The notes beneath the pieces were generated by a model. The model did no database searches. It worked only from the letters and a program-made list of their open reading frames with translations, and was not told where the DNA came from. A stretch of DNA of 64,000 bases. Origin: Arenicola marina (taxonomy: Eukaryota > Annelida > Polychaeta > Arenicolidae). The stretch is from contig OZ025249.1 in the NCBI GenBank assembly GCA_964019135.1, forward strand, positions 6,436,039-6,500,038. Direction: 5' to 3'. Within the stretch, counting starts at the first letter, position 1. Every line of letters begins with the position of its first letter. The position numbers and the translations under genes were made by a program. Shown here piece by piece: positions 22,912-64,000 of this stretch.

Positions 22912-25900
22912 GCTGTCTGTGGGGGGCTCGCCGTGAGTCGATGGCTGTCTGTGGGGGGCTCGCCGTGAGTCGATGGCTGTCTGTGGGGGGCTCGCCGTGA
23001 GTCGATGGCTGTCTGTGGGGGGCTCGCCGTGAGTCGATGGCTGTCTGTGGGGGGCTCGCCGTGAGTCGATGGCTGTCTGTGGGGGGCTCGCCGTGAGTCG
23101 ATGGCTGTCTGTGGGGGGCTCGCCGTGAGTCGATGGCTGTCTGTGGGGGGCTCGCCGTGAGTCGATGGCTGTCTGTGGGGGGCTCGCCGTGAGTCGATGG
23201 CTGTCTGTGGGGGGCTCGCCGTGAGTCGATGGCTGTCTGTGGGGGGCTCGCCTTGAGTCGATGGCTGTCTGTGGGGGGCTCGCCGTGAGTCGATGGCTGT
23301 CTGTGGGGGGCTCGCCGTGAGCCGATGGCTGTCTGTGGGGGGCTCGCCGTGAGTCGATGGCTGTCTGTGGGGGGCTCGCCGTGAGTCGATGGCTGTCTGT
23401 GGGGGGCTCGCCGTGAGTCGATGGCTGTCTGTGGGGGGCTCGCCGTGAGTCGATGGCTGTCTGTGGGGGGCTCGCCGTGAGTCGATGGCTGTCTGTGGGG
23501 GGCTCGCCGTGAGTCGATGGCTGTCTGTGGGGGGCTCGCCGTGAGTCGATGGCTGTCTGTGGGGGGCTCGCCGTGAGTCGATGGCTGTCTGTGGGGGGCT
23601 CGCCGTGAGTCGATGGCTGTCTGTGGGGGGCTCGCCGTGAGTCGATGGCTGTCTGTGGGGGGCTCGCCGTGAGTCGATGGCTGTCTGTGGGGGGCTCGCC
23701 GTGAGTCGATGGCTGTCTGTGGGGGGCTCGCCGTGAGTCGATGGCTGTCTGTGGGGGGCTCGCCGTGAGTCGATGGCTGTCTGTGGGGGGCTCGCCGTGA
23801 GTCGATGGCTGTCTGTGGGGGGCTCGCCGTGAGTCGATGGCTGTCTGTGGGGGGCTCGCCGTGAGTCGATGGCTGTCTGTGGAGGGCTCGCTGTGAGTCG
23901 ATGGATGTCTGTGGGGGGCTCGCCGTGAGTCGATGGCTGTCTGTGGGGGGCTCGCCGTGAGTCGATGGCTGTCTGTGGGGGGCTCGCCGTGAGTCGATGG
24001 CTGTCTGTGGGGGGCTCGCCGTGAGTCGATGGCTGTCTGTGGGGGGCTCGCCGTGAGTCGATGGCTGTCTGTGGGGGGCTCGCCGTGAGTCGATGGCTGT
24101 CTGTGGGGGGCTCGCCGTGAGTCGATGGCTGTCTGTGGGGGGCTCGCCGTGAGGCGATGGCTGTCTGTGGGGGGCTCGTCGTGAGTCGATGGCTGTCTGT
24201 GGGGGGCTCGCCCTGAGTCGATGGCTGTCTGTAGGGGGCTCGCCGTGAGTCGATGGCTGTCTGTGGGGGGCTCGCTGTGAGTCGATGGCTGTCTGTGGGG
24301 GGCTCGCTGTGAGTCGATGGCTGTCTGTGCGGGGCTCCCCGTGAGTCGATGGCTGTCTGTGGGGGGCTCGCCGTGAGTCGATGGCTGTCTGTGGGGGGCT
24401 CGCCGTGAGTCGATGGCTGTCTGTGGGGGGCTCGCCGTGAGTCGATGGCTGTCTGTGGGGGGCTCGCCGTGAGTCGATGGCTGTCTGTGGGGGGCTCGCC
24501 GTGAGGCGATGGCTGTCTGTGGGGGGCTCGTCGTGAGTCGATGGCTGTCTGTGGGGGGCTCGTCGTGAGTCGACGGCTGTCTGTGGGGGGCTCGCCGTGA
24601 GGCGATGGCTGTCTGTGGGGGGCTCGCTGTGAGTCGATGGATGTCTGTGGGGGGCTCGCCGTGAGTCGATGGCTGTCTGTGGGGGGCTCGCCGTGAGTCG
24701 ATGGCTGTCTGTGGGGGGCTCGCTGTGAGTCGATGGTTGTCTGTGGGGGGCTCGCTGTGAGTCGATGGCTGTCTGTGGGGGGCTCGCTGTGAGTCGATGG
24801 CTGTCTGTGGGGGGCTCGCTGTGAGTCGATGGCTGTCTGTGGGGGGCTCGCTGTGAGTCGATGGCTGTCTGTGGGGGGCTCGCCGTGAGTCGATGGCTGT
24901 CTGTGGGGGGCTCGCTGTGAGTCGATGGCTGTCTGTGGGGGGCTCGCCGTGAGTCGATGGCTGTCTGTGGGGGGCTCGCTGTGAGTTGATGGCTGTCTGT
25001 GGGGGCTCGCCGTGAGTCGATGGCTGTCTGTGGGGGGCTCGCTGTGAGTTGATGGCTGTCTGTGGGGGGCTCGCCTTGAGTCGATGGCTGTCTGTGGGGG
25101 GCTCGCCGTGAGTCGATGGCTGTCTGTGGGGGGCTCGCCGTGAGTCGATGGCTGTCTGTGGGGGGCTCGCCGTGAGTCGATGGCTGTCTGTGGGGGGCTC
25201 GCCGTGAGTCGATGGCTGTCTGTGGGGCGCTCTCCGTGAGTCGATGGCTGTCTGTGGGGGGCTCGCTGTGAGTCGATGGCTGTCTGTGGGGGGCTCGCCG
25301 TGAGTCGATGGCTGTCTGTGGGGGCTCGCCGTGAGTCGATGGCTGTCTGTGGGGGGCTCGCCGTGAGTCGATGGCTGTCTGTGGGGGGCTCTCCGTGAGT
25401 CGATGGCTGTCTGTGGGGGGCTCGCTGTGAGTCGATGGCTGTCTGTGGGGGGCTCGCCGTGAGTCGATGGCTGTCTGTGGGGGCTCTCCGTGAGTCGATG
25501 GCTGTCTGTGGGGGGCTCGCTGTGAGTCGATGGCTGTCTGTGGGGGTCTCGCCGTGAGTCGATGGCTGTCTGTGGGGGGCTCGCCGTGAGTCGATGGCTG
25601 TCTGTGGGGGGCTCGCCGTGAGTCGATGGCTGTCTGTGGGGGGCTCGCCGTGAGTCGATGGCTGTCTGTGGGGGGCTCGCCTTGAGTCGATGGCTGTCTG
25701 TGGGGGGCTCGCCGTGCGTCGATGGCTGTCTGTGGGGGGCTCGCCGTGAGTCGGTGGCTGTCTGTGGGGGGCTCGCTGTGAGTCGATGGCTGTCTGTGGG
25801 GGGCTCGCTGTGAGTCGATAGATGTCTGTGGGGGGCTCGCCGTGAGTCGATAGATGTCTGTGGGGGGCTCGCCGTGAGTCGATGGATGTCTGTGGGGGGC

Positions 25901-28900
25901 TCGCTGTGAGTCGATGGCTGTCTGTGGGGGGCTCGCCGTGAGTCGATGGCTGTCTGTGGGGGGCTCGCCGTGAGTCGATGGATGTCTGTGGGGGGCTCGC
26001 TGTGAGTCGATGGCTGTCTGTGGGGGGCTCGCCGTGAGTCGATGGCTGTCTGTGGGGGGCTCGCCGTGAGTCGATGGCTGTCTGTGGGGGGCTCGCCGTG
26101 AGTCGATGGCTGTCTGTGGGGGGCTCTCCGTGAGTCGATGGCTGTCTGTGGGGGGCTCGCTGTGAGTTGATGGTTGTCTGTGGGGGGCTCGCTGTGAGTC
26201 GATGGCTGTCTATGGGGGGCTCGCTGTGAGTTGATGGCTCTTCTGTGGGGGGCTCGCCGTGAGTCGATGGCTGTCTATGGGGGGCTCGCCGTGAGGCGAT
26301 GGCTGTCTGTGGGGGGCTCACTGTGAGTCGATGGCTGTCTGTGGGGGGCTCGCCGTGAGTCGATGGCTGTCTGTGGGGGGCTCGCTGTGAGTTGATGGCT
26401 GTCTGTGGGAGGCTCGCCGTGAGTTGATGGCTGTCTGTGGGGGGCTCTCCGTGAGTCGATGGCTGTCTGTGGGGGGCTCGCTGTGAGTTGATGGCTGTCT
26501 GTGGGGGGCTCGCTGTGAGTCGATGGCTGTCTATGGGGGGCTCGCTGTGAGTTGATGGCTGTCTGTGGGGGGCTCGCCGTGAGTCGATGGCTGTCTGTGG
26601 GGGGCTCGCTGTGAGTCGATGGCTGTCTGTGGGGGGCTCGCCGTGAGTCGATGGCTGTCTGTGGGGGGCTCACTGTGAGTCGATGGCTGTCTGTGGGGGG
26701 CTCGCCGTGAGTCGATGGCTGTCTGTGGGGGGCTCGCCGTGAGTCGATGGCTGTCTGTGGGGGCTCGCCGTGAGTCGATGGCTGTCTGTGGGGGGCTCGC
26801 CGTGAGTCGGTGGCTGTCTGTGGGGGGCTCGCTGTGAGTCGATGGCTGTCTGTGGGGGGCTCGCTGGGAGTCGATAGATGTCTGTGGGGGGCTCGCCGTG
26901 AGTCGATGGATGTCTGTGGGGGGCTCGCTGTGAGTCGATGGCTATCTGTGGGGGGCTCGCCGTGAGTCGATGGCTGTCTGTGGGGGGCTCGCCGTGAGTC
27001 GATGGCTGTCTGTGGGGGGCTCGCCGTGAGTCGATGGCTGTCTGTGGGGGGCTCGCCGTGAGTCGATGGCTGTCTGTGGGGGGCTCGCCGTGAGTCGATG
27101 GCTGTCTGTGGGGGGCTCGCCGTGAGTCGATGGCTGTCTGTGGGGGGCTCGCCCTGAGTCGATGGCTGTCTGTGGGGGGCTCGCCGTGAGTCGATGGCTG
27201 TCTGTGGGGGGCTCGCCCTGAGTCGATGGCTGTCTGTGGGGGGCTCGCCGTGAGTCGATGGCTGTCTGTGGGGGGCTCGCCGTGAGTCGATGGCTGTCTG
27301 TGGGGGGCTCGCCCTGAGTCGATGGCTGTCTGTGGGGGGCTCGCCGTGAGTCGATGGCTGTCTGTGGGGGGCTCGCCGTGAGTCGATGGCTGTCTGTGGG
27401 GGGCTCGCCGTGAGTCGATGGCTGTCTGTGGGGGGCTCGCCGTGAGTCGATGGATGTCTGTGGGGGGCTCGCCGTGAGTCGATGGCTGTCTGTGGGGGGC
27501 TCGCCTTGAGTCGATGGCTGTCTGTGGGGGGCTCGCTGTGAGTCGATGGCTGTCTGTGGGGGGCTCGCTGTGAGTCGATGGCTGTCTGTGGGGGGCTCGC
27601 CTTGAGTCGATGGCTGTCTGTGGGGGGCTCGCCGTGAGTCGATGGCTGTCTGTGGGGGGCTCGCCGTGAGTCGATGGCTGTCTGTGGGGGGCTCGCTGTG
27701 AGTCGATGGCTGTCTGTGGGGGGGCTCGCCGTGAGTCGATGGCTGTCTGTGGGGGGCTCGCCGTGAGTCGATGGCTGTCTGTGGGGGGCTCGCCTTGAGT
27801 CGATGGCTGTCTGTGGGGGGCTCGCCCAGAGTCGATGGATGTCTGTGTGGGGCTCGCCGTGAGTCGATGGATGTCTGTGGGGGGCTCGCCGTGAGTCGAT
27901 GGCTGTCTGTGGGGGGCTCGCTGTGAGTTGATGGCTGTCTGTGGGGGGCTCGCTGTGAGTCGATGGCTGTCTGTGGGGGGCTCGCTGTGAGTTGATGGCT
28001 GTCTGTGGGGGGCTCGCCGTGAGTCGATGGCTGTCTGTGGGGGGCTCGCCGTGAGTCGATGGCTGTCTGTGGGGGGCTCGCTGTGAGTTGATGGCTGTCT
28101 GTGGGGGGCTCGCCGTGAGTCGATGGCTGTCTGTGGGGGCTCGCCGTGAGTCGATGGCTGTCTGTGGGGGGCTCGCCGTGAGTCGATGGCTGTCTGTGGG
28201 GGGCTCGCCGTGAGTCGATGGCTGTCTGTGGGGGGCTCGCCGTGAGTCGATGGCTGTCTGTGGGGGGCTCGCCTTGAGTCGATGGCTGTCTGTGGGGGGC
28301 TCGCTGTGAGTCGATGGCTGTCTGTGGGGGGCTCGCCTTGAGTCGATGGCTGTCTGTGGGGGGCTCGCCGTGAGTCGATGGCTGTCTGTGGGGGGCTCGC
28401 CGTGAGTCGATGGCTGTCTATGGGGGGCTCGCCGTGAGTCGATGGCTGTCTGTGGGGGGCTCGCCGTGAGTCGATGGCTGTCTGTGGGGGGCTCGCCGTG
28501 AGTCGATGGCTGTCTGTGGGGGGCTCGCCGTGAGTCGATGGCTGTCTGTGGGGGGCTCGCCGTGAGTCGATGGCTGTCTGTGGGGGGCTCGCCGTGAGTC
28601 GATGGCTGTCTGTGGGGGGCTCGCCGTGAGTCGATGGCTGTCTGTGGGGGGCTCGCCGTGAGTCGATGGCTGTCTGTGGGGGGCTCGCCGTGAGTCGATG
28701 GCTGTCTGTGGGGGGCTCGCCTTGAGTCGATGGCTGTCTGTGGGGGGCTCGCCTTGAGTCGATGGCTGTCTGTGGGGGGCTCGCCCTGAGTCGATGGCTG
28801 TCTGTGGGGGGCTCGCCGTGAGTCGATGGCTGTCTGTGGGGGGCTCGCCTTGAGTCGATGGCTGTCTGTGGGGGGCTCGCTGTGAGTCGATGGCTGTCTG

Positions 28901-30127
28901 TGGGGGGCTCGCCGTGAGTCGATGGCTGTCTGTGGGGGGCTCGCCGTGAGTCGATGGCTGTCTGTGGGGGGCTCGCCGTGAGTCGATGGCTGTCTGTGGG
29001 GGGCTCGCCGTGAGTCGATGGCTGTCTGTGGGGGCTCGCCGTGAGTCGATGGCTGTCTGTGGGGGGCTCGCCGTGAGTCGATGGCTGTCTGTGGGGGGCT
29101 CGCCGTGAGTCGATGGCTGTCTGTGGGGGGCTCGCCGTGAGTCGATGGCTGTCTGTGGGGGGCTCGCCTTGAGTCGATGGCTGTCTGTGGGGGGCTCGCT
29201 GTGAGTCGATGGCTGTCTGTGGGGGGCTCGCCTTGAGTCGATGGCTGTCTGTGGGGGGCTCGCCGTGAGTCGATGGCTGTCTGTGGGGGGCTCGCCGTGA
29301 GTCGATGGCTGTCTGTGGGGGGCTCGCCGTGAGTCGATGGCTGTCTGTGGGGGGCTCGCCGTGAGTCGATGGCTGTCTGTGGGGGGCTCGCCTTGAGTCG
29401 ATGGCTGTCTGTGGGGGGCTCGCTGTGAGTCGATGGCTGTCTGTGGGGGGCTCGCCTTGAGTCGATGGCTGTCTGTGGGGGGCTCGCCGTGAGTCGATGG
29501 CTGTCTGTGGGGGGCTCGCCGTGAGTCGATGGCTGTCTATGGGGGGCTCGCCGTGAGTCGATGGCTGTCTGTGGGGGGCTCGCCGTGAGTCGATGGCTGT
29601 CTGTGGGGGGCTCGCCGTGAGTCGATGGCTGTCTGTGGGGGGCTCGCCGTGAGTCGATGGCTGTCTGTGGGGGGCTCGCCGTGAGTCGATGGCTGTCTGT
29701 GGGGGGCTCGCCGTGAGTCGATGGCTGTCTGTGGGGGGCTCGCCGTGAGTCGATGGCTGTCTGTGGGGGGCTCGCCGTGAGTCGATGGCTGTCTGTGGGG
29801 GGCTCGCCGTGAGTCGATGGCTGTCTGTGGGGGGCTCGCCTTGAGTCGATGGCTGTCTGTGGGGGGCTCGCCTTGAGTCGATGGCTGTCTGTGGGGGGCT
29901 CGCCCTGAGTCGATGGCTGTCTGTGGGGGGCTCGCCGTGAGTCGATGGCTGTCTGTGGGGGGCTCGCCTTGAGTCGATGGCTGTCTGTGGGGGGCTCGCT
30001 GTGAGTCGATGGCTGTCTGTGGGGGGCTCGCCGTGAGTCGATGGCTGTCTGTGGGGGGCTCGCCGTGAGTCGATGGCTGTCTGTGGGGGGCTCGCCGTGA
30101 GTAGATGGCTGTCTGTGGGGGCTCTCC
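22912..30127. repeat. Minisatellite, 32-bp unit, about 225 copies (7.2 kb), with higher-order structure
   Basis: The basic unit contains tggctgtctgtggggggctc followed by gccgtgagtcga. Variants include cttgag, cctgag and ctgtgag for cgtgag, a missing G, tctat for tctgt, and gatg for ggctg. Ordered strings of variants repeat: the string beginning with cttgag at 28721 recurs at 29840, and the tctat unit at 28419 recurs at 29538, both 1,119 bp apart. That is 35 units less one deleted base. The left end (22912-23300) is the most uniform, while 24100-28100 is the most mixed. The minus strand has T almost only before C, so stop codons are rare there; this explains the minus-strand open frames of more than 1,100 codons. 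Confidence 0.98.
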
Positions 30128-30586
30128 GCCTCACGCACGGAGCACAACAGCCAGGATCGACCATTAAGACGATACGAATAACATGCAGAATCCTCTATAT
30201 CTATATCCGCTATATGTAGGTACTTAGAGTGAATTCCTTTCTTTATTCACCTGATACCGTGTGTTATTAAGCTTAGGCTGGTTCCCCGGCACTAACCGGG
30301 GGAAAGAAGCCCCACCTAGTGAATGAGAGATTTGCTCCCACGGACTCATTGTCGCCTCACGTACCTTGCTGAACCCAATCAGCCTACAGCCGGAAACGGT
30401 CTTAATACCCGGATGTCTGAGATGACAAGAAAACTGTACATTATTATTACATGCAATGTATGAAAGGGTTCCCCCAGCCACAAGCGCTCACAGCTGATGA
30501 TCATAATCAGTACTGTATGCGCCAAGAGTAAGCAATTCACAGCCCACTCACCTCACACTTCGACCCGCCTCACGCATGCATTAATC
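30128..30586. other. Unannotated sequence
   Basis: No recognised feature between the 32-bp array and the SINE cluster. Confidence 0.4.
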
Positions 30587-31529: not shown

Positions 31530-33882
31530 ACTTACCGCCGTGTTGCCACCTTACCGCAGTGTTGTCACCTCACCGCGGTGTTGTCATCCTTACGCGGTGT
31601 TGTCACCTTACCACAGTTTTGTCATCTTACCGCAGTGTTGCCACCTTACCGCCGTGTTGCTACCTTACCGCAGAGTTGTCACCTCACCGCGGTGTTGTCA
31701 TCTTACCGCGGTATTGTCACCTTACCACAGTGTTGTCACCTTACCGCAGTGTTGCCATCTTACCGCGGTGTTGTCACCTTACCGCAGTGTTGCCATCTTA
31801 CCGCGGTGTTGCCACCTTACCACAGTGTTGTCAACTTACCGCAGTGTTGTCACCTTACCGCGGTGTTGTCACCTTACAGCGATGTTGTCATCTTACCGCG
31901 GTGTGGTCTTCTTACCGGTGTTGTCACCTTACCGCAAGGGTTGCCACCTTACCGCAGTGTTGTCACCTTACCACAGTGTTGTCATCTTACCGCGGTGTTG
32001 TCACCTTACCGCAGTGTTGTCACCTCATCGCGGGGTTGTCACCTCACCGCAGTGTTTTCACCTTACAGCGATGTTGTCATCTTACCGCAGTGTTGTCAGC
32101 TTACCGCAGTGTTGTCACCTTACCGCAGTGTTGTCACCTTACCGCAGTGTTGTCACCTTACAGCCGTGTTGTCATCTTACCGCGGTGTTGTCTTCTTAGC
32201 GCAGTGTTGTCACCTTATCACAGTGTTGTCACCTTACCGTAGTGTTTTCATCTTACCGCAGTGTTGTCAACTTAGCGCAGTGTTGTCACCTTACTGCAGT
32301 GTTGTTGCCTTACCGCAGTGTGGTCACCTTACAGCAGTGTTGTCACCCTACTATAGAGTTCTCACCTTACCGCAGTGGTGTCAACTTACCGCAGTGTTGT
32401 CACCTTACCACAGAGTTATTACCTTACCACAGTGTTGTCATCTTACCGCAGTGTTGTCACCTTACCGCAGTGTTGTCGCCTTACCGCAGTGTTGCCACCT
32501 TACGGCAGTGTTGTCACCTTTCAGCAGTAATGCCACCTTACCGCAGTGTTGTCCCCTTACCGCAGTGTTGTCACATTACCGCCGTGTTGTCACGTTACCG
32601 CAGTCTTGTCGCCTTACTACAGTGTTGTCTCCTTACTGCAAGGTTGTCACCTTACCGCAGTGTTGTCACCTTTCAGCAGTGTGGTCACCTTACCACAATG
32701 CTGTCACCTTACCGCAGTGTTGTCACATTACCGCCGTGTTGTCACATTACCGCCGTGTTATCACTTTACCGCAGTCTTGTCAGCTTACTGCAATGTTGCC
32801 ACTTTACCGCAGTGTTGTCACCTTACCGCAGTGTTGTCACCTTACCGCAGTGTTATCACCCCACCGCAGTGTTGTTACCTTACCACACTGTTGTCACCTT
32901 TCAGCAGTGTGGTCACCATACCACAGTGTTGTCACCTTACCGCAGTGTTGTCACCTTACCGCAGTGTTGTCACCTTATCACAGTGTTGTCACCTTTCCAC
33001 AGTGTTGTCACCTTACCACAGGGTTGTCTCCTTACTGCAGTGTGGTCACCATACCACAGTTTTGTCACCTTACCGCAGTGTTGTCTCCTTTCTACAATGT
33101 TGTCATATTACCGCAGTGTTGTCACCTTACCGCAGTGTTGTCACCTTACCGCAGTGTTGTCACCTTACCGCAGTGTTGTCACCTTACCACAGTGTTGTCA
33201 CCTTACCACAGTGTTGTCTCCTTACTGCAATGTTGTCACCTTACCGCAGTGTTGTCATCTTTCAGCAGTGTGGTCACCTTACCACTGTGTTGTCACCTTA
33301 CCGCAGTGTTGTCTCCTTACTACAATGATGTCACTTTACCGCAATGTTGTCACCTTACCGCCGTGTTGTCACCTTACCGCAGTCCTGTCACCTTACCGCA
33401 GTGTTGTCACCTCACCACAGTGGTGTATATTTACTGCAATGTTGTCACCTTACCGCAGTGTTGTTACCTTACAGCAGTGTTGTCACGTTACTGCAGTGTT
33501 GTCACATTACCACAGTGTTGTCACCTTACCGTAGTGTTGTCACCTTACCACAGTGTTGTCACCTTACCACAGCGTTGTCACCATACCACAGTGTTGTCTC
33601 CTTACTGTAATGTTGTCACCTTACCGCAGTGTTGTTACCTTACATCAGTGTTGTCACCTTACCGCAGTGTTGTTACCTTACAGCAGTGTTGTCACCTTAC
33701 CGCAGTGTTGTCACCTTATAGCAGTGTTGTCGCCTTACCACAGTGTTGTCACATTACCACAATGGTGTCACCTTACCGCAGTGTTGTCACATTACCACAA
33801 TGTTGTCACCTTACCACAGTTTTGTCACCTTACCACAGTTTTGTCACCTTACCACAGTGTTGGTACCTCGCCGCAGTGTTGG
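31530..33882. repeat. Minisatellite, 19-bp unit, about 124 copies (2.35 kb)
   Basis: The commonest unit is tgttgtcaccttaccgcag. Units are more diverged than in the other large arrays: catctt, cacagt, tgccacc and cagcagt variants are all common. The left third has many cgcggtg units and the right two thirds have cgcagtg or cacagtg. The unit shares its length with the array at 2369-6649 but not its sequence. Plus-strand frames of up to 807 codons are open because each T in the unit starts TGT, TTG, TCA, TTA or TAC, never a stop. Confidence 0.97.
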
Positions 33883-59300: not shown

Positions 59301-62300
59301 GTTCTCTTCCCATATTCGGCCCGGGTCGTTTCTTACTTCATTTAGTACATTTTGAGTACCATTTGACGGCCTTCTCATCAAGGGAACCAATGGCCGTATG
59401 TTTTTTCCGACCAAATGAAAAACCGTTAAAAATTAATTGAAGAATGTTTTATCAAGCATCATAATCCTTCCCATCCACATGGTTAGCGCTTCAATTCCAC
59501 CGAAAGTCTTAGAGATATGTGGCATCGAACCATTGTTCTCTGGTCTGTTAATCACTTAATGGTTGCCGACTTGCAATGGCCCTGCTGTGGTAATAATGTC
59601 TCCGAATGTCCCTCGACGCTTTCAGAAGGCAGAATGGAGGCAATATTCTGGAAGCGATCCATCTTATCTGTGCGTTGGGCGTCAGGTTATCAAGTTTGGA
59701 CATGACATCAGCAAGAAAAGCAAGTCGATATCAGAAGTTTTACGGCTTATTGCATAAACAGTTAAAGATAACAAACTGCAAAGCCGTTAAAACTTAAGCA
59801 CATTTCCTAGAATTGTTGACATCCGTTTTGGTGTTTGCCACGTGGTTTTCTATCGTGTAATGTTCACGTCGCGAGAGGACAAAGGCCAGGGTGCTAAACA
59901 GTGTATCTTCCCCCTCAGTGGCCTCAAGTGCAAACACAATACAATGCCAGTAGTTGAATAACGCCGGAGAATGCACCCACCCCACTCTTCATGTTACCCG
60001 CTCCTGGTCGCCTAGCACATCCTTCTCAGGGAGACGCTTGTCATGTCTTTCCAAGTACACCGCTTGGATGTAATCATCAGTCCCAGCCCTGCAAAGGGTC
60101 CGTTCGAAAGTCACTGAGTAGCCGTCCTGGGGGAAAATGTAAAGTGGCAAGCCATGTTCCCTTGTACTTACGACAGTTCGTGTGTGGTTTAGTGCCACTA
60201 TAATCACCTTTTGGGTTTGAAGAGTCTATGACGCTATTGGTCTCACACCAAAACAAAACAAACAAAGCAACTGTAACATTTTATTTTCCACTAGCGTCCT
60301 TTGTTCAGTAAGTTCGCCAAGTATCCATCATCTTGGATGCGAGTTCTGTGGGAATCGTTGGTCTGGAATAGTCTACAAAGATAAATGTTATACTTCCGAG
60401 CTAATGGCATTGGATGTATATGAAAAATCAGCCGGACGTTTAATTGTCTGCTGAATATCTTGTGATGCGATAACGCCTTCCTGACATTGCGTAAAGATCA
60501 AAATAATACCCAAAATGCATCGCACATTCAGTAGGGCCTGACAGTGAAATAATGATATGCGAAGGTGTCTATAGTAGAATATACTCATAGCTTAAAGTTC
60601 AACGTTTGGTGCGACAAAATGACTTCTTGGGGGAAGGCAAAGACGAGTGCGTTGTCCCTGAGATCAATACCGTTCATGCCTATCCAATTCCACGAAAGGC
60701 AGTTAACACGCCAACTCCACGATAGAGGCCAACGACCGGCCTCATCACACTCCTCAATCTGCTGACGCATTGGGGTCACGAAAACATCATTTGGAATGCT
60801 CCCAAAATGGGCCGATGTGATATTTAGTGTCACTACTGTAACAATGCGTGTCTAGGGATGGCATGTCTTTACAATGGTAACCGGCGAGAGAAACATATAA
60901 TAAATCATATATTTGTCACACAAATGTAATGATTTTTAGATATGTCATACTAATGTCATAATTTTTAGAAAAATGTCATACTAATGTCATAATTTTTTGA
61001 AATGTCATACTATAGTCATAATTTATGTCACTGGAATTGTAAAATGTATATCTTTTGTCCGGCAAATATCGTAACTTGTTTATTTGTCATGGTATTAAGT
61101 GTGAACCGCTGTCTAGCCTGGTATATCGTCTGAAAGTTCGTGTCAGCGGCCGTCGTATTGTAAAAAAAAGTCAAATCCTCATTCACTATTGAAATAATCC
61201 CGGTGTTCCCAATGGTACTTAGGATTATATGATTAACTGTGCGTGTTACTGGGTGCAACTGGCACAACATAATTTATATTTTTTGCCTTTATGACATGTG
61301 ACTATGTTTAGTCCATAATCCTAATAGCTTATAAACATTGATGCATTTTCCTGAATCAGTCGCCAACGTAAGATGCACCAGTTTCTCATTGCAAATCACT
61401 TCTTTCCAGGAGGATTATAAGAACAAGATGGATGCCGTTTCCCGGGAGGGGATTTCAGTGAGTGACGAGACCAAGCTGCTGGGGTCCATCAGTAAGTATC
61501 CATGACAACCACGAATAATCCCGAACCATTCGTCAGTGACGATATCGAGCGGTCAAATTATTAAGGATAAAATGTCGGTTATTAATTAACTTGCGTTTTT
61601 GCGATGATCGTATCCGTAGATTTCTACAGCATCCGGTTACCACGTGGACAATTTAATCCGGCTCGCGTCTACGTAACATGATACTGCACTCACCGTCGTT
61701 GAAATAATCTCTGATCCAAATGGTGTCTCCTGAGCAGAGGACAAACAACCTAGCCGGGAAGGTACGTGGTCACGTGGGATTTTTACTTGCCTTGTCACTG
61801 TGCATTTTTGTCCCCGACATCAGACACCGCCATGAACACCTACTGCTATCGCACAGCGCTAATTATTGTGTACTCATTATGTGCTAGCTTTTCCTTTTTT
61901 TCTTTGTGCTTTCACATGTCTTGGATCAAATGCCAAACTGCTTTGCAAGTGGCTTTTTCTTATAATAGGGCATATCAGGCCGATAATGAGTATCACGTGT
62001 GGGTTCACGTTACCCCCTCCTCTCTGGTATCGCCCTCCTAGACCTCCCCGACCCCCCGTCCCCCCGTCCCCACACACACACCAAGACCCGGTCAGCAACA
62101 ATGAACAGGTACACAGATACAGAGGAATAGTGCAGGTCCGCGTCAGAGAAGCGTGGAAGGTCAAGGACAAATAACACGTTTGCCATGTCAGGTTTCACAC
62201 ATTGTGATGCGCAATCGAGAGGAATACACAACCGCCATCCCCAGGCAAGATCATTGTAAACGATGATCAACAGAGCATGTATTGTAATGGGGTAGGGGAT

Positions 62301-63582
62301 ACGGTATGAGAGTTACAAAGTTATTTTGAATGAATCTTTCGTTGGAATGAGAGGTGAAATGCCCCGCTGGTCCAGATATTGCACTCCCCCGCTGTTCCAG
62401 ATATTGCACTCCCCCGCTGTTCCAGATATTGCACTCCCCCGCTGGTCCAGATATTGTACTCCCCCGCTGGTCCAGATATTGCGTTTCCCCGCTGGTCCAG
62501 ATATTGCATTCCCCGCTGGTCCAGATATTGCACTCCCCGCTGGTCCAGATATTGCACTCCCCCGCTGGTCCAGCTATTGCACACCCCTGCTGGTCAAGAT
62601 ATTGCGTTTCCCCGCTGGTCCAGATATTGCAGTCCCCCGCTAGTCCAGATATTGCACTCCCCGCTGGTCCAGATATTGCACTCCCCCGCTGGTCCAGATA
62701 TTGCACTCCCCTGCTGGTCCAGATATTGCACTCCCCCGCTGGTCCAGCTATTGCACTCGCCGGCTGATCCAGATATTGCGTTCCCCTGCTGGTCCAGATA
62801 TTGCACTCCCCGTTGGTCCAGATATTGCACTCCCCCGCTGATCCAGATATTGCACTCCCCGCTGGTCCAGATATTGCACTCGCCCGCTGATCCAGATATT
62901 ACGCTCCGCCGCTGGTCCACATATTGCTCTCCCTCGCTGATCCAGATATTGTACTCCCCCGCTGGTCCAGATATCGCACTCCCCCGCTGGTCCAGATATT
63001 GTACTCCCTGTTGTCGATTATGTTGCACTGGCGGATCCAAGGAGAGTGATTTAGAAGTTTTTTAATACCTCTCCCTTCAAGCAAGGGGGTGTTAAAGACT
63101 GCTATGCCTCAATGGCCCTTTTTGAGGAATAATGCCGTTTTCCATGCAAAATCAAGACCATCTCATGTGTGGAACTCTCCTCCCCCACCCCCAGGTTCGC
63201 AATTTTTGCAGTGCCGCCCCCTCCCCCCTTCAAATTCTAGATGCGTTCTTGTGTTGGTTTAACTTGTCTTCTGTAGGTAGTTGTTTGCTAACGTGACGCT
63301 TGCTGCACTTGCATATGCTCTGTGACTGTTGTATTGTGATACATGTGGTGATCTATTGCGGTGCTTTCCTTTCGCTGGGTGTTTTAATTAATCGCAAGTA
63401 TACGATTGTTACATGGTGTTGTCTCTTCTTTCGATGTTGTCTCTGATCGCTATTGTAACTTTATTGTTGTGTCTTTCCTTTCTGGATGTTGTGGATATCT
63501 TTTGCCGCAGACATTCGTAAATTTACGGGCGCTGTCAAGCGGGCATCCGGGTTCCTGACGACCATGAGATCCCTTGTCAGAG
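44224..63582 (+). CDS. Split gene (partial): EF-hand-like protein resembling the C1orf87/CREF family
   Basis: Nine exons on the plus strand join with matching phases: 0, 1, 0, 1, 0, 2, 0 and 1 at successive junctions. They yield about 490 codons from the ATG at 44245 to the last visible donor at 63583. The order is a short basic Ser/Gly/Arg-rich start, a first helix-loop-helix pair (exons 3-4), a second pair (exons 5-7), a long basic Pro/Ser/Thr linker (exon 7) and the beginning of a C-terminal part (exons 8-9). The EF-type loops lack several calcium-binding residues, so strong calcium binding is doubtful. The layout of two such pairs plus a disordered linker is what I remember of C1orf87, a poorly understood protein; homology is an inference. 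The gene continues beyond the window. The introns are rich in minisatellites and mobile elements. Confidence 0.72.
44469..44682 (-). mobile_element. tRNA-derived SINE, family 1, copy C (antisense, in intron 1) with 10-bp target duplication
   Basis: Read on the minus strand, the element starts with a tRNA-like head containing cgatagctcagtgggctaga, then the family body, and ends in the aaccaacc-type tail. The head lacks the box B block present in copies A and B, an internal deletion. The 10-bp word cgaattcttt occurs immediately on both sides (44459-44468 and 44683-44692), a perfect target-site duplication. The insertion is 110 bp downstream of the exon 1 donor, antisense to the gene. Confidence 0.88.
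45039..46155. repeat. Minisatellite, 20-bp unit, about 56 copies (1.1 kb), in intron 1
   Basis: The unit is close to tgtccagctcagcccacgcg. Variants are tcctgct or tcttgct for tccagct, cgtctg for cgcgtg, and cgacct for cgtcct. It ends 37 bp before the next exon, so the array lies in or near the branch-point region. All three plus frames are largely open because of composition. Confidence 0.96.
46193..46250 (+). CDS. Exon 2, short basic exon
   Basis: The acceptor tctttaccccacag ends at 46192 and the strong donor gtaagt starts at 46251. The 58-nt exon enters at phase 0 and leaves with one base. It encodes PPRRTGKFRRAPKSTAEVA and joins the next exon to make an Asp codon. The phase match at both ends supports it. 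The acceptor and first bases (46167-46208) are nearly identical to 30957-30998, so this exon may derive from, or have given rise to, a dispersed sequence. Other phase-1 exons could lie in the 9.6-kb intron that follows. Confidence 0.6.
46271..46281. repeat. Poly-G tract
   Basis: Run of 11 G, 20 bp inside the intron after exon 2. Confidence 0.85.
46573..50577. repeat. Tandem triplication of a roughly 930-1015 bp segment in intron 2
   Basis: The segment begins aaagtact near 46573, 47500 and 49580, each time followed by tgacgtcat and an actgtac word. Copies match along their length, including gcgagctgataaattgcgat and cggcttgcgcctcgtacatt. Copy 1 lacks about 90 bp that copies 2 and 3 have (around 48060-48130 and 50110-50190). 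Copy 2 is lengthened to 2,080 bp by the foldback element at 48150-49205. Copy 3 ends near 50577, and a short inverted piece of the segment start follows at about 50668-50716. No open frame is conserved across the three copies. Confidence 0.9.
48150..49205. mobile_element. Mutator-like foldback element, 1,056 bp, about 365-bp terminal inverted repeats, 9-bp target duplication
   Basis: The element begins tacccatgaatggc and ends gccattcatgggta. The inverted repeats pair 48150-48515 with about 48835-49205 at high identity. The word aatctgaag flanks it on both sides (48141-48149 and 49206-49214). The other two copies of the surrounding tandem segment carry the uninterrupted site, near 47135-47150 (aatctgttgatgaac) and 50200-50215 (aatttgaagataaac), which confirms the boundaries. 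Long inverted repeats with 9-bp target duplications are the usual signature of the Mutator superfamily. The 320-bp centre encodes no transposase, so the copy is non-autonomous. Confidence 0.9.
50578..51260. repeat. Nested inverted repeats, foldback structure
   Basis: The block gtcacaataatgactcctcg to aggtcctta (about 50745-50900) is repeated in reverse at about 50958-51075. A third partial copy of the arm lies at 51178-51248. The stretch ataaggaatgagttgtaggt occurs three times between 50827 and 50920. A separate direct repeat, cctcctgctcatggtccgca, is found at 50581 and 51111. Together these suggest a non-autonomous foldback element or overlapping copies of one. Ends and target duplication are not resolved. 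Confidence 0.75.
51261..51675. other. Unannotated intronic sequence
   Basis: No recognised feature between the foldback region and the 45-bp array. Confidence 0.4.
51676..53870. repeat. Minisatellite, 45-bp unit, about 49 copies (2.2 kb), in intron 2
   Basis: The unit contains ttgatagccgccacagcctg followed by ttattaccgttagtttgaggacacc. Two subtypes, tagtcgcc with gtgagcttg and tagccgcc with gttagtttg, alternate in recurring patterns. A third subtype with ccccataccc is confined to the left end. The unit is 15 codons, so a 790-codon minus-strand frame stays open (GCGGYQGVLKLTVIT). It lies inside an intron on the opposite strand and has no non-repeat domain, so I treat it as non-coding. Confidence 0.96.
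54100..54478 (-). mobile_element. Dispersed repeat, unclassified, copy 2 (in intron 2)
   Basis: This is the reverse-orientation partner of 9545-9880. Shared parts include the AT-rich stretch with ttatgatgcatat, the GC-rich block with gcgcgcggacgt and cgcggtcgac, the ggatataaagccggccacca block and the aatacaaaaaattacggaat block at the right. It is unclassified; no coding capacity or clear target duplication is seen. Confidence 0.75.
54630..54790 (+). mobile_element. tRNA-derived SINE head, third type
   Basis: A box A-like gtggcccagtgggtagcgcg near 54642 and an excellent box B, ggggttcgaaccccac, near 54712 are separated by too long a spacer for a normal tRNA gene. The following aactaagtgtgtgcaggata sequence would be the SINE body. 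It adjoins the inverted-repeat element at 54802, and the two may be one composite retroposon. Confidence 0.6.
54802..55053. mobile_element. Small inverted-repeat element (MITE-like), 252 bp
   Basis: The segment starts ggggccgtattcat and ends atgaatacggcccc, a perfect 14-bp inverted repeat. The inner sequence has partly complementary arms (cgtaagttacgcac against gcgtagcctaagtg). It has no coding capacity. No clear target duplication is visible because both flanks are G/C- and T-rich. Confidence 0.75.
55054..55805. other. Intronic sequence before exon 3
   Basis: No recognised feature. A 103-codon plus-strand frame at 55110-55421 has no recognised domain and no defensible splice context. Confidence 0.4.
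55806..55999 (+). CDS. Exon 3: first helix of an EF-hand-like pair
   Basis: The acceptor tcgtttttcag ends at 55805 and the donor gtccgt begins at 56000. The exon enters needing one base, supplied by exon 2, and leaves at phase 0. It encodes DGEVTVEGDLDLRASQEVEK, then a long amphipathic helix, and ends RLSPKELVQVFQ. The loop around YGSTEARLSPKE has the EF-hand spacing, with Glu at position 12 but without the Asp/Gly residues that bind calcium. The exon is GC-rich with no stop in frame for 64 codons. Confidence 0.8.
56700..56820 (+). CDS. Exon 4: second half of the first EF-hand-like pair
   Basis: The frame continues from exon 3 at phase 0 as ENNIKLSSRTFQLILDLFED and ends MWKCIVAAQSKT plus one base before the donor gtgaca. 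The acceptor (cgttaacttgaag) has a poor pyrimidine tract; an alternative at 56650 would add 16 in-frame residues. I chose 56700 because the join VFQ-ENNIKL fits the expected helix spacing. DGLGVDY gives a degenerate EF-type loop. Confidence 0.75.
57165..57370 (+). CDS. Exon 5: start of the second EF-hand-like pair
   Basis: The acceptor ttaccccgatccag ends at 57164. This site, and not the earlier cag at 57145, satisfies the one-base carry from exon 4 and avoids an in-frame stop. The exon encodes a charged, Gln-rich segment, then LIRRIGIQLRGGQQNCDLVQ, LRKTLREANTEKDGKLSKEQ, ending at phase 0 before the donor gtgcgt. NTEKDGKLSKEQ matches an EF loop with Gly at position 6, but has Asn at position 1 and Gln at position 12, so calcium binding is probably weak. 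Confidence 0.78.
57519..57599. repeat. Short tandem repeat, about 21-bp unit, 4 copies, in intron 5
   Basis: The unit is close to gacccaagtgacccaggttg plus t and lies between exons 5 and 6. Flanking words such as caagtgatccag near 57612 look like a decayed further unit. Confidence 0.85.
57655..57752 (+). CDS. Exon 6: second half of the second EF-hand-like pair
   Basis: The acceptor gtcgtccacag ends at 57654 and the donor gtaggc starts at 57753. The 98-nt exon enters at phase 0 and leaves with two bases. It encodes VVTVIGDSQIPIYGALLSGL then VRRCTNHRAEQV. It continues the SKEQ of exon 5 into the helix following an EF loop, with the short IPIY strand typical of such pairs. Confidence 0.82.
58196..58721 (+). 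CDS. Exon 7: end of the EF-hand-like pair and long basic Pro/Ser/Thr-rich linker
   Basis: The acceptor ggttgtcgcttcag ends at 58195 and the donor gtacaa begins at 58722. The first base completes a Ser codon with exon 6, giving VSWPELMTFLEKG, the final helix of the pair. About 160 residues follow, rich in Pro, Ser, Thr, Ala, Arg and Lys, with a His-rich start (HHRKHHKP) and no hydrophobic segments. The section is probably disordered. It ends GRRNELSE at phase 0. GC content is far above that of the neighbouring introns, which supports coding. The 526-nt length is the largest of the gene's exons here. Confidence 0.85.
58722..61409. other. Intron 7 with a possible extra exon and faint minus-strand coding traces
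   Basis: A 60-nt stretch at 59626-59685 is bounded by ctttcag and a gt and is open at phase 0 on both sides, so it could be an unconfirmed exon. On the minus strand, 59989-60207, 60585-60833 and 61028-61270 carry protein-like frames that do not join cleanly and that I cannot assign to a family. Confidence 0.4.
60940..61028. repeat. Short AT-rich tandem repeat, about 30-bp unit, 3 copies
   Basis: The word atgtcatac recurs at 60942, 60973 and 61002, with a taatgtcataattttt-type spacer. Confidence 0.8.
61410..61491 (+). CDS. Exon 8
   Basis: The acceptor cacttctttccag ends at 61409 and the strong donor gtaagt starts at 61492. The exon enters at phase 0 after exon 7 and encodes EDYKNKMDAVSREGISVSDE then TKLLGSI plus one base. 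It begins the charged C-terminal region. I do not recognise a domain in it. Confidence 0.75.
61492..63510. other. Intron 8 with a candidate 24-nt microexon and a 25-bp minisatellite
   Basis: 61738-61761 has a cag acceptor and a gtacgt donor with compatible phase (see findings). The 25-bp array is listed separately. Otherwise no recognised feature. Confidence 0.45.
62361..63009. repeat. Minisatellite, 24/25-bp unit, about 26 copies, in intron 8
   Basis: The unit contains ccgctggtccagatattgca followed by ctccc. Length alternates between 24 and 25 by one C, and variants are tgatcc, gttcc and cagctatt. The minus strand carries QYLDQRG-type repeats by composition. Confidence 0.95.
63511..63582 (+). 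CDS. Exon 9 (last visible)
   Basis: The acceptor atcttttgccgcag ends at 63510 and the donor gtaaag begins at 63583. With the A carried from exon 8 it encodes NIRKFTGAVKRASGFLTTMR then SLVR, leaving one base. The last seven bases (gtcagag) and the donor form the first unit of the minisatellite that follows, so the donor is repeated downstream. The stretch is basic and hydrophobic in alternation, possibly an amphipathic helix. Confidence 0.75.
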
Positions 63583-64000
63583 GTAAAGAACCGCCATGTT
63601 TGTTATGTATGTCAGAGGTAAGGAGCCGCCATGTTTGTTATGTATGTCAGAGGTAAGGAGCCGCCATGTTTGTTATGTATGTCAGAGGTAAGGAGCCGCC
63701 ATGTTTGTTATGTATGTCAGAGGTAAGGAGCCGCCATGTTTGTTATGTATGTCAGAGGTAAGGAATCGCCATGTTTGTTATGTATGTCAGAGGTAAGGAG
63801 CCGCCATGTTTGTTATGTGTGTCAGAGGTAAGGAACCGCCATGTTTGTTATGTATGTCAGAGGTAAGGAGCCGCCATGTTTGTTATGTATGTCAGAGGTA
63901 AGGAGCCGCCATGTTTGTTATGTATGTCAGAGGTAAGGAGCCGCCATGTTTGTTATGTGTGTCAGAGGTAAGGAACCGCCATGTTTGTTATGTATGTCAG
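63576..64000. repeat. Minisatellite, 35-bp unit, about 12 copies, containing the exon 9 splice donor
   Basis: Units start gtcagaggtaaggagccgcc and continue atgtttgttatgtat. The first copy overlaps the 3' end of exon 9, and every later copy repeats its exon-end bases and a gtaagg or gtaaag donor (GT at 63583, 63618, 63653 and so on every 35 bp). Copies are almost identical. The array runs off the right edge of the window. Confidence 0.96.

What the first reader, a model, noticed from the sequence alone, without database searches (positions are those of the whole stretch)
63576..64000. A coding exon's splice-donor junction amplified as a 35-bp minisatellite
The sequence shows the last seven bases of exon 9 plus its donor repeated about twelve times without interruption, starting exactly at the exon end. 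Every unit has cagag followed by gtaagg, a donor at least as good as the first (gtaaag). Splicing at a later unit would add a whole number of 35-bp units, which is not a multiple of three, so the frame would shift unless three units were added. The array could create many competing donors, an exon of variable length, or a decoy cluster that buffers donor loss. I know of no standard name for this arrangement.
Basis: partly seen in the sequence, partly recalled or inferred. Interest (0 to 1): 0.75.

Follow-up and report, generated by a model that had tools for sequence, protein, structure and literature searches.

The report
Repeated splice junction in worm gene
In a segmented worm's gene, the spot where one coding piece ends is copied about 21 times in a row; this arrangement, called a "mirage" in lancelets, turned up at several other genes sampled here, and it raises the question of how cells keep picking the right copy.

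Summary
A 35-bp minisatellite starts 8 nt inside a 72-nt coding exon (63511-63582) of an EML-like gene and runs past the window end to 21.4 copies (C2:6499613-6500362), with 20 intact donors GTAAGG behind the first, GTAAAG. Only the first donor keeps the frame: one or two retained units shift it, and unit 3 contains an in-frame TAA. Useful protein variants from this array are therefore unlikely.

Such arrays are known as "mirages" in lancelets (passages). The host here is an annelid by its mitochondrial gene order (PMC2639372 passages). The one annelid-directed search on this topic found no report. It is not a one-off: I read exon-derived donor arrays at ten more boundaries (GPx, ClC-like, ALDH1L with 168 units, KDM5, two dynein heavy chains and others), one acceptor array, and one array starting on a stop codon.

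Best reading: tandem duplications overlapping a functional boundary are tolerated because the outermost copy still works while the surplus copies lie in the intron. Donor choice needs RNA data.

The parts
61410..61491 (+). preceding coding exon of the EML-like gene (82 nt), donor GTAAGT
   Evidence: joins in frame with the next exon
63511..63582 (+). coding exon (72 nt, acceptor ...TTTTGCCGCAG, ends ...TGTCAGAG), authentic donor GTAAAG at 63583
   Evidence: in-frame chain into a HELP motif
63575..64000 (+). 35-bp minisatellite covering the last 8 nt of the exon and the first intron bases; runs past the window end to 21.4 copies (C2:6499613-6500362)
   Evidence: TRF; genome match
63618..63623 (+). 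first of the 20 additional donors GTAAGG, spaced 35 bp (those beyond 64000 read from L004)

Best explanation
It is a splice-donor 'mirage': a tandem duplication of a 35-bp stretch that straddled an exon end, later expanded in the intron. It persists because duplication across a functional boundary is nearly harmless: the outermost copy stays part of the exon with a working donor, and all further copies are intronic as long as the first donor is used. The exon end is held by selection while the rest of the array turns over. The same shielding would explain an array that starts on a stop codon and one that ends at an acceptor, both seen elsewhere in the genome. Shown: the anatomy, the frame consequences, and recurrence at unrelated genes. 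Inferred: the duplication mechanism, use of the first donor, and near-neutrality.
For: Exon chain in frame only with donor 0. The unit repeats coding exon tail in the 11 donor cases read: shared tails of 8 to 70 nt in the ten cases scored with up to 12% mismatch (59 nt exact in ClC) and about 42 nt in DNAH1, by eye (L047). Unrelated genes: GPx and ClC-like, ALDH1L, KDM5/PLU-1, dynein heavy chains DNAH3/7-type and DNAH1, TECR-like, weak, two further ALDH exons, and an unidentified tetraspan-like exon. An acceptor array ends at an ALDH exon start (L063), and an array repeats the last seven codons plus stop of an ORF (L019). The first EML unit differs from the inner ones, as expected at an array edge. 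Lancelet reports say mirages do not disturb splicing (passages).
Against: No RNA evidence in this animal. In the EML array the authentic donor is weaker than all 20 competitors, so first-donor use is not obvious. Arrays also seem closer to donors than a random spread would give: of 10 chosen ALDH exon ends (one, L051, looks like a last exon without a donor), 3 have an array starting 5-21 nt into the intron, against 34 arrays in 200 kb. That may need a mutational bias besides shielding. None of those 10 exon ends has an exon-derived array.
Confidence: 0.72

Rival explanations
1. Re-splicing rescue. The EML unit begins with GT and ends with AG, so any run of retained units is itself a GT...AG intron. 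If a later donor is used first, a second splice from donor 0 to the AG at the end of the last retained unit restores the exact exon-exon junction. The array is then harmless whichever donor is chosen.
For: Unit form GT...AG in the EML array; it would explain tolerance of 20 stronger donors.
Against: The unit ends in AG in 6 of the 11 donor arrays (EML, GPx, ALDH1L, KDM5, ALDH L062, DNAH1) and not in 5 (ClC-like, tetraspan-like, DNAH3/7, TECR-like, ALDH L060), so it is no general requirement. A 35-nt intron is very short.
Confidence: 0.12
2. A mutational hot spot at 5' splice sites (for example transcription-linked strand slippage or R-loops at exon ends) creates the arrays; selection plays little part.
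For: 11 clusters of the pair CAGGTAAG..CAGGTAAG against 4 of the reversed word in the same first 19.5 Mb of C1 (clusters grouped by eye from the listed places). Of the 13 listed reversed-word clusters, 3 have a donor of 7 bits or more in the unit (next best 4.9), and these 3 start at coding exon ends. 3 of 10 ALDH exon ends have an array starting within 21 nt.
Against: An acceptor array (L063) and a stop-codon array (L019) exist too. Strong donors in array units of the random sample are not in significant excess: 4 of 60 at 2 or more copies against a shuffle mean of 2.0, p 0.125, reversed matrix 3 of 60; 3 of 24 at 5 or more copies against 0.9, p 0.06. None of the 10 chosen ALDH exon ends had an exon-derived array.
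Confidence: 0.3
3. Regulated function: the array acts as a decoy or U1-binding cluster that tunes splicing or guards against premature polyadenylation, or makes exon variants.
For: 20 of 20 later EML units keep GTAAGG. The ALDH1L and tetraspan-like arrays have periods divisible by 3 and stay open for 14.8 and 37.6 units. Mean divergence is lower in donor columns than in the rest in 5 of 5 exon-abutting arrays and higher in 2 of 3 arrays not seen at an exon.
Against: Later EML donors give a shift or a premature stop. Column ranks are not significant (7/35, 45/71, 7/77, 12/27, 6/45). 55 of 166 ALDH1L donors have drifted.
Confidence: 0.07
4. Assembly artefact.
For: Tandem arrays are error-prone in assemblies; no reads were available here.
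Against: The units carry ordered differences; the array is only 750 bp on a 61.5-Mb contig; the same anatomy recurs at unrelated genes.
Confidence: 0.03

Closest known systems
'Mirages' of amphioxus (Adh3, globins BflGb6 and BflGb9, TnC, PGBD5)
   Same: [quoted passage not shown] PMC3902484 passages).
   Different: The host is an annelid, not a lancelet. Arrays here reach 21 (EML) and 168 units (ALDH1L), against 6 and 3 units in the two BflGb6 haplotypes and 2 to 7 in PGBD5 assemblies (same passages). RNA was checked there for some genes, not here.
Intron gain by tandem genomic duplication of AGGT
   Same: Tandem duplication containing a proto-splice site (PMC4974935, search listing and start of abstract only).
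   Different: There a new intron arises; here the intron already exists and is extended at its start.
Earthworm metallothionein first-intron minisatellites (PMC12783039, passages)
   Same: Annelid host, minisatellites inside an intron.
   Different: Not described in the passages read as containing an exon end.

Membership tests
Mirage (structural definition) | tandem units span an exon-intron boundary | tested here: met
   8 nt of coding exon plus donor in the units
Mirage (structural definition) | unit of minisatellite size (about 10-160 bp reported) | tested here: met
   35 bp; reported range from passages
Mirage (structural definition) | boundary copy belongs to an intact coding gene | tested here: met
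   in-frame chain of four exons and HELP motif; the rest of the gene was not assembled
Mirage (structural definition) | normal splicing not disturbed | not testable with these tools
   no RNA data; only donor 0 keeps the frame
Mirage (structural definition) | length instability between haplotypes or cells | not testable with these tools
   one assembly only
Amphioxus mirage by common descent | cephalochordate host | tested here: not met
   annelid mitochondrial gene order on C762 (PMC2639372 passages)
Intron gain by tandem duplication | a new intron created within a former exon | not tested
   no relative without the intron was available

The most novel reading that the evidence does not exclude
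In this annelid a sizeable share of exon boundaries, perhaps around a tenth judging from a small sample, is amplified into minisatellites. Pre-mRNAs would then routinely carry tens to over a hundred competing splice sites as good as or better than the true one, and splicing would have to choose by position (first donor, last acceptor) or correct itself by re-splicing, rather than by site strength. Such arrays may also be a standing source of new introns and of in-frame peptide repeats (ALDH1L and the tetraspan-like gene).
Probability: 0.35. Interest if true: 0.85.

Novelty: new member of a known kind. Interest (0 to 1): 0.6.

Why it matters
The mirages that my searches found in print are all from lancelets. 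Finding them at unrelated genes of an annelid, at higher copy number than those reports give, suggests that minisatellite-prone animal genomes in general may have them. Each is a natural experiment in 5' splice-site choice: similar or stronger donors at fixed spacing behind the authentic one, with known frame consequences. The EML array is a sharp case because the true donor scores lowest of 21 and the others give shifts or premature stops. The arrays are also candidate raw material for intron gain.

Tried and rejected
Lancelet origin was my first guess (from the mirage literature). A GFP-family search in the genome found nothing but was uninformative, because its control rang nowhere; the mitochondrial gene order then pointed to an annelid. 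Selection on donors within arrays: tested, not significant, and donors drift in ALDH1L. General enrichment of donor motifs among array units of the random sample: not significant. Donor array in the window at 31531-33881 (minus strand, GCGGTAAGG): no coding exon recognised at its start. L008 (230-bp unit, donor ACGGTGAGT): no recognisable exon. Of 11 donor-word clusters, 10 were fetched; six have their start in view without an exon that I could recognise by eye (L029, L034, L035, L038, L040, L041), and one (L036) was not followed to its start; unrecognised or non-coding exons are not excluded. iGluR-like flank of L024: the array ends near it but is not exon-derived by eye, no Pfam match. A second donor word (AAGGTGAGT pair) was asked six times and never answered. 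Tetraspan-like exon L037 and ORF L019: no Pfam match. A flank survey of the 34 random-sample arrays was prepared but only read by eye, for arrays of 5 or more copies and segments of 40 residues or more; it was not run against Pfam as a whole.
Full report
The finding as given. TRF calls 63575-64000, 35 bp, 12.2 copies, 96% matches; in the genome (window = C2:6436039-6500038) it goes on to 21.4 copies, L004 214-963. The exon before it is coding: four exons (61410-61491, 63511-63582, L004 1594-1680, L004 5833-6040) join in one open frame, and the product runs into a HELP motif (E 1.8e-17) like that of EML1 (PDB 4ci8, E 3.8e-17). An EF-hand-like stretch upstream is far below cut-off (E 0.18); the whole gene was not assembled.

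Consequences for the protein. With the first donor (GTAAAG) the frame continues. Using the donor of unit 1 or 2 shifts the frame and soon meets stops; with three units the length is a multiple of three, but unit 3 holds an in-frame TAA (0 to 4 units tried; longer forms contain the same unit). So either the first donor is chosen despite being weaker, or wrong products are removed or re-spliced.

What it is. Tandem repeats spanning exon-intron boundaries were named 'mirages' in amphioxus: Adh3, globins (PMC3087553, passages), PGBD5 and troponin C (PMC3902484, passages). Those passages say that mirages do not disturb regular splicing. The original paper (Nucleic Acids Res 2002) is not held; I know it only through these passages.

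Which animal. The 15,942-bp contig C762 carries COX1. Open frames and tRNAs on one strand give ND4L-ND4-(rrnS-rrnL)-ND1-ND3-ND2-COX1-COX2-ATP8-COX3-ND6-CYTB-ATP6-ND5. Pfam confirms ND4L, ND4, ND1, ND3, COX2, CYTB, ATP6 and ND5; the ND2 frame matches only the general antiporter family, and ND6 is below its cut-off. ATP8, COX3 and the rRNAs are named by neighbours and recalled sequence. TGA, ATA, AGA and AAA fit Trp, Met, Ser and Lys at COX1 sites (conserved sites recalled). [quoted passage not shown] So the host is an annelid; the species is unknown. Of the ten paper searches, only asked for annelids with minisatellites and splicing; it listed two papers. PMC12783039 (passages) does not describe boundary-spanning units; the other (PMC12130307) was not opened. 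One search, not limited to a taxon, listed 20 of 151 papers. Absence from print is therefore only lightly tested.

Is it alone? No. (1) Random sample: 20 stretches of 10 kb hold 34 arrays with period 15 or more and 3 or more copies. Two of the 34 are exon-derived donor arrays: L014 (glutathione peroxidase exon, PF00255 E 1.5e-8) and L023 (ClC-like exon, PF00654 E 3.5e-5, just under the family cut-off; 71-bp unit, 32 copies). L023 also has an older, degenerate array with a similar exon tail further down the intron, by eye. (2) Donor-word clusters: the pair CAGGTAAG..CAGGTAAG occurs 4188+3890 times against 1745+881 for the reversed word. The listed pairs, all on C1 up to 19.53 Mb, form 11 clusters by eye; 10 were fetched. 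Three of 10 start at a coding exon: ALDH1L (PDB match E 1e-24; 168.5 units of 39 bp), a tetraspan-like exon (27 bp, 38 units, no Pfam match), and KDM5/PLU-1 (E 3.8e-10). (3) Control-word clusters: 13 by eye in 89.7 Mb, 4 of them in the same first 19.5 Mb of C1. Three of 13 have a donor of 7.0 to 11.2 bits in the unit (next best 4.9); the 5' sides of these 3 were fetched and all 3 start at coding exon ends: a DNAH3/7-type dynein heavy chain (E 1.2e-22 to DNAH3; the top row, E 5.6e-23, is a chain of similar length that carries another molecule name), DNAH1 (E 1.7e-12) and a TECR-like exon (weak: PDB E 0.0025, Pfam E 0.004 below cut-off). The other 10 clusters were not fetched. (4) Exon-centred: 10 of 13 ALDH exon matches (three near-duplicates on C1 dropped). 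None of the 10 exon ends has an exon-derived array, but 3 of 10 have an array starting 21, 9 and 5 nt into the intron (L049, L052, L058); one of the ten (L051) looks like a last exon without a donor. On the upstream side, 1 of 10 ends in an acceptor array (L063, mostly 41-bp units with TTTCAG|TGACGTGGAC), and two donors of the preceding exons, seen by chance in the same stretches, are exon-derived arrays: L062 (48 bp, 5.5 copies; ALDH, Pfam E 1.7e-5, PDB E 1.1e-6) and L060 (67 bp, 2.9 copies; PDB E 2e-7, no Pfam match; its array begins at the edge of the fetched stretch, so its start was not seen). (5) L019 has 37 copies of a 33-bp unit that begins with the last seven codons and stop of a long open frame (no Pfam match). 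In total: 11 donor cases including EML, 1 acceptor case, 1 stop-codon case.

How common. The samples are small and partly chosen by motif, so I give no genome total. For ALDH, 34 arrays per 200 kb would predict about 0.04 array starts within 25 nt of ten exon ends (hand arithmetic, window chosen after seeing the data), against 3 seen. In the random sample, donor-like units are not in significant excess (4 of 60 at 9 bits or more, shuffles 2.0, p 0.125; reversed matrix 3 of 60; at 5 or more copies 3 of 24, shuffles 0.9, p 0.06).

Mechanism. The unit carries 8 to 70 nt of exon end in the ten cases scored. Where the array start was in view, the first copy is the exon itself and the array extends into the intron. 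The stop-codon and acceptor arrays have the matching polarity: the copy that matters is the outermost one. This fits boundary shielding of ordinary tandem duplication in a genome dense in arrays (about 65 kb of 229.5 kb in the 20 random and 3 window-adjoining stretches). It does not by itself explain the apparent closeness of arrays to donors. Selection for donors within arrays was not found. Re-splicing is possible where the unit has the form GT...AG (6 of 11), not elsewhere.

Limits. No RNA, no reads, no second individual. Exons were recognised by eye and by short protein matches; clusters were counted by eye from the listed places only.

Noticed in passing
window 1-64000; L004-L026: The genome is very rich in minisatellites: 101 arrays (period 10 or more) covering about 65 kb of 229.5 kb in 20 random and 3 window-adjoining stretches; the window itself has arrays of up to 7.2 kb (22912-30128, 32 bp, 226 copies).
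   Followed up: partly
L019 1-1525: A 33-bp array of 37 copies begins on the last seven codons and stop codon of a long open frame and continues in the presumed 3' UTR.
   Followed up: partly
L023 5668-5932: A degenerate array of about 33 bp that shares the ClC-like exon tail lies downstream of the young 71-bp array: apparently two rounds of array birth from one exon end (by eye).
   Followed up: no
L037+L028: A second 42-bp array follows the tetraspan-like 27-bp array directly; some of its units carry a strong donor (CAGGTAAGT) although its tail does not match the exon.
   Followed up: no
L012 6101-7583 and L018 6970-8471: Coding-looking in-frame arrays by eye (66 bp x 22 next to a USP-like stretch, UCH E 0.0018 below cut-off; 60 bp x 25, no Pfam match in its flank), both periods divisible by three.
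   Followed up: no
L066 1-555: A 15-bp C+T-rich array runs to within about 8 nt of an ALDH acceptor, so that it seems to supply the polypyrimidine tract.
   Followed up: no
window 62362-63008: A 25-bp array of 26 copies lies in the intron just before the exon of the finding, without a strong donor in its unit.
   Followed up: no
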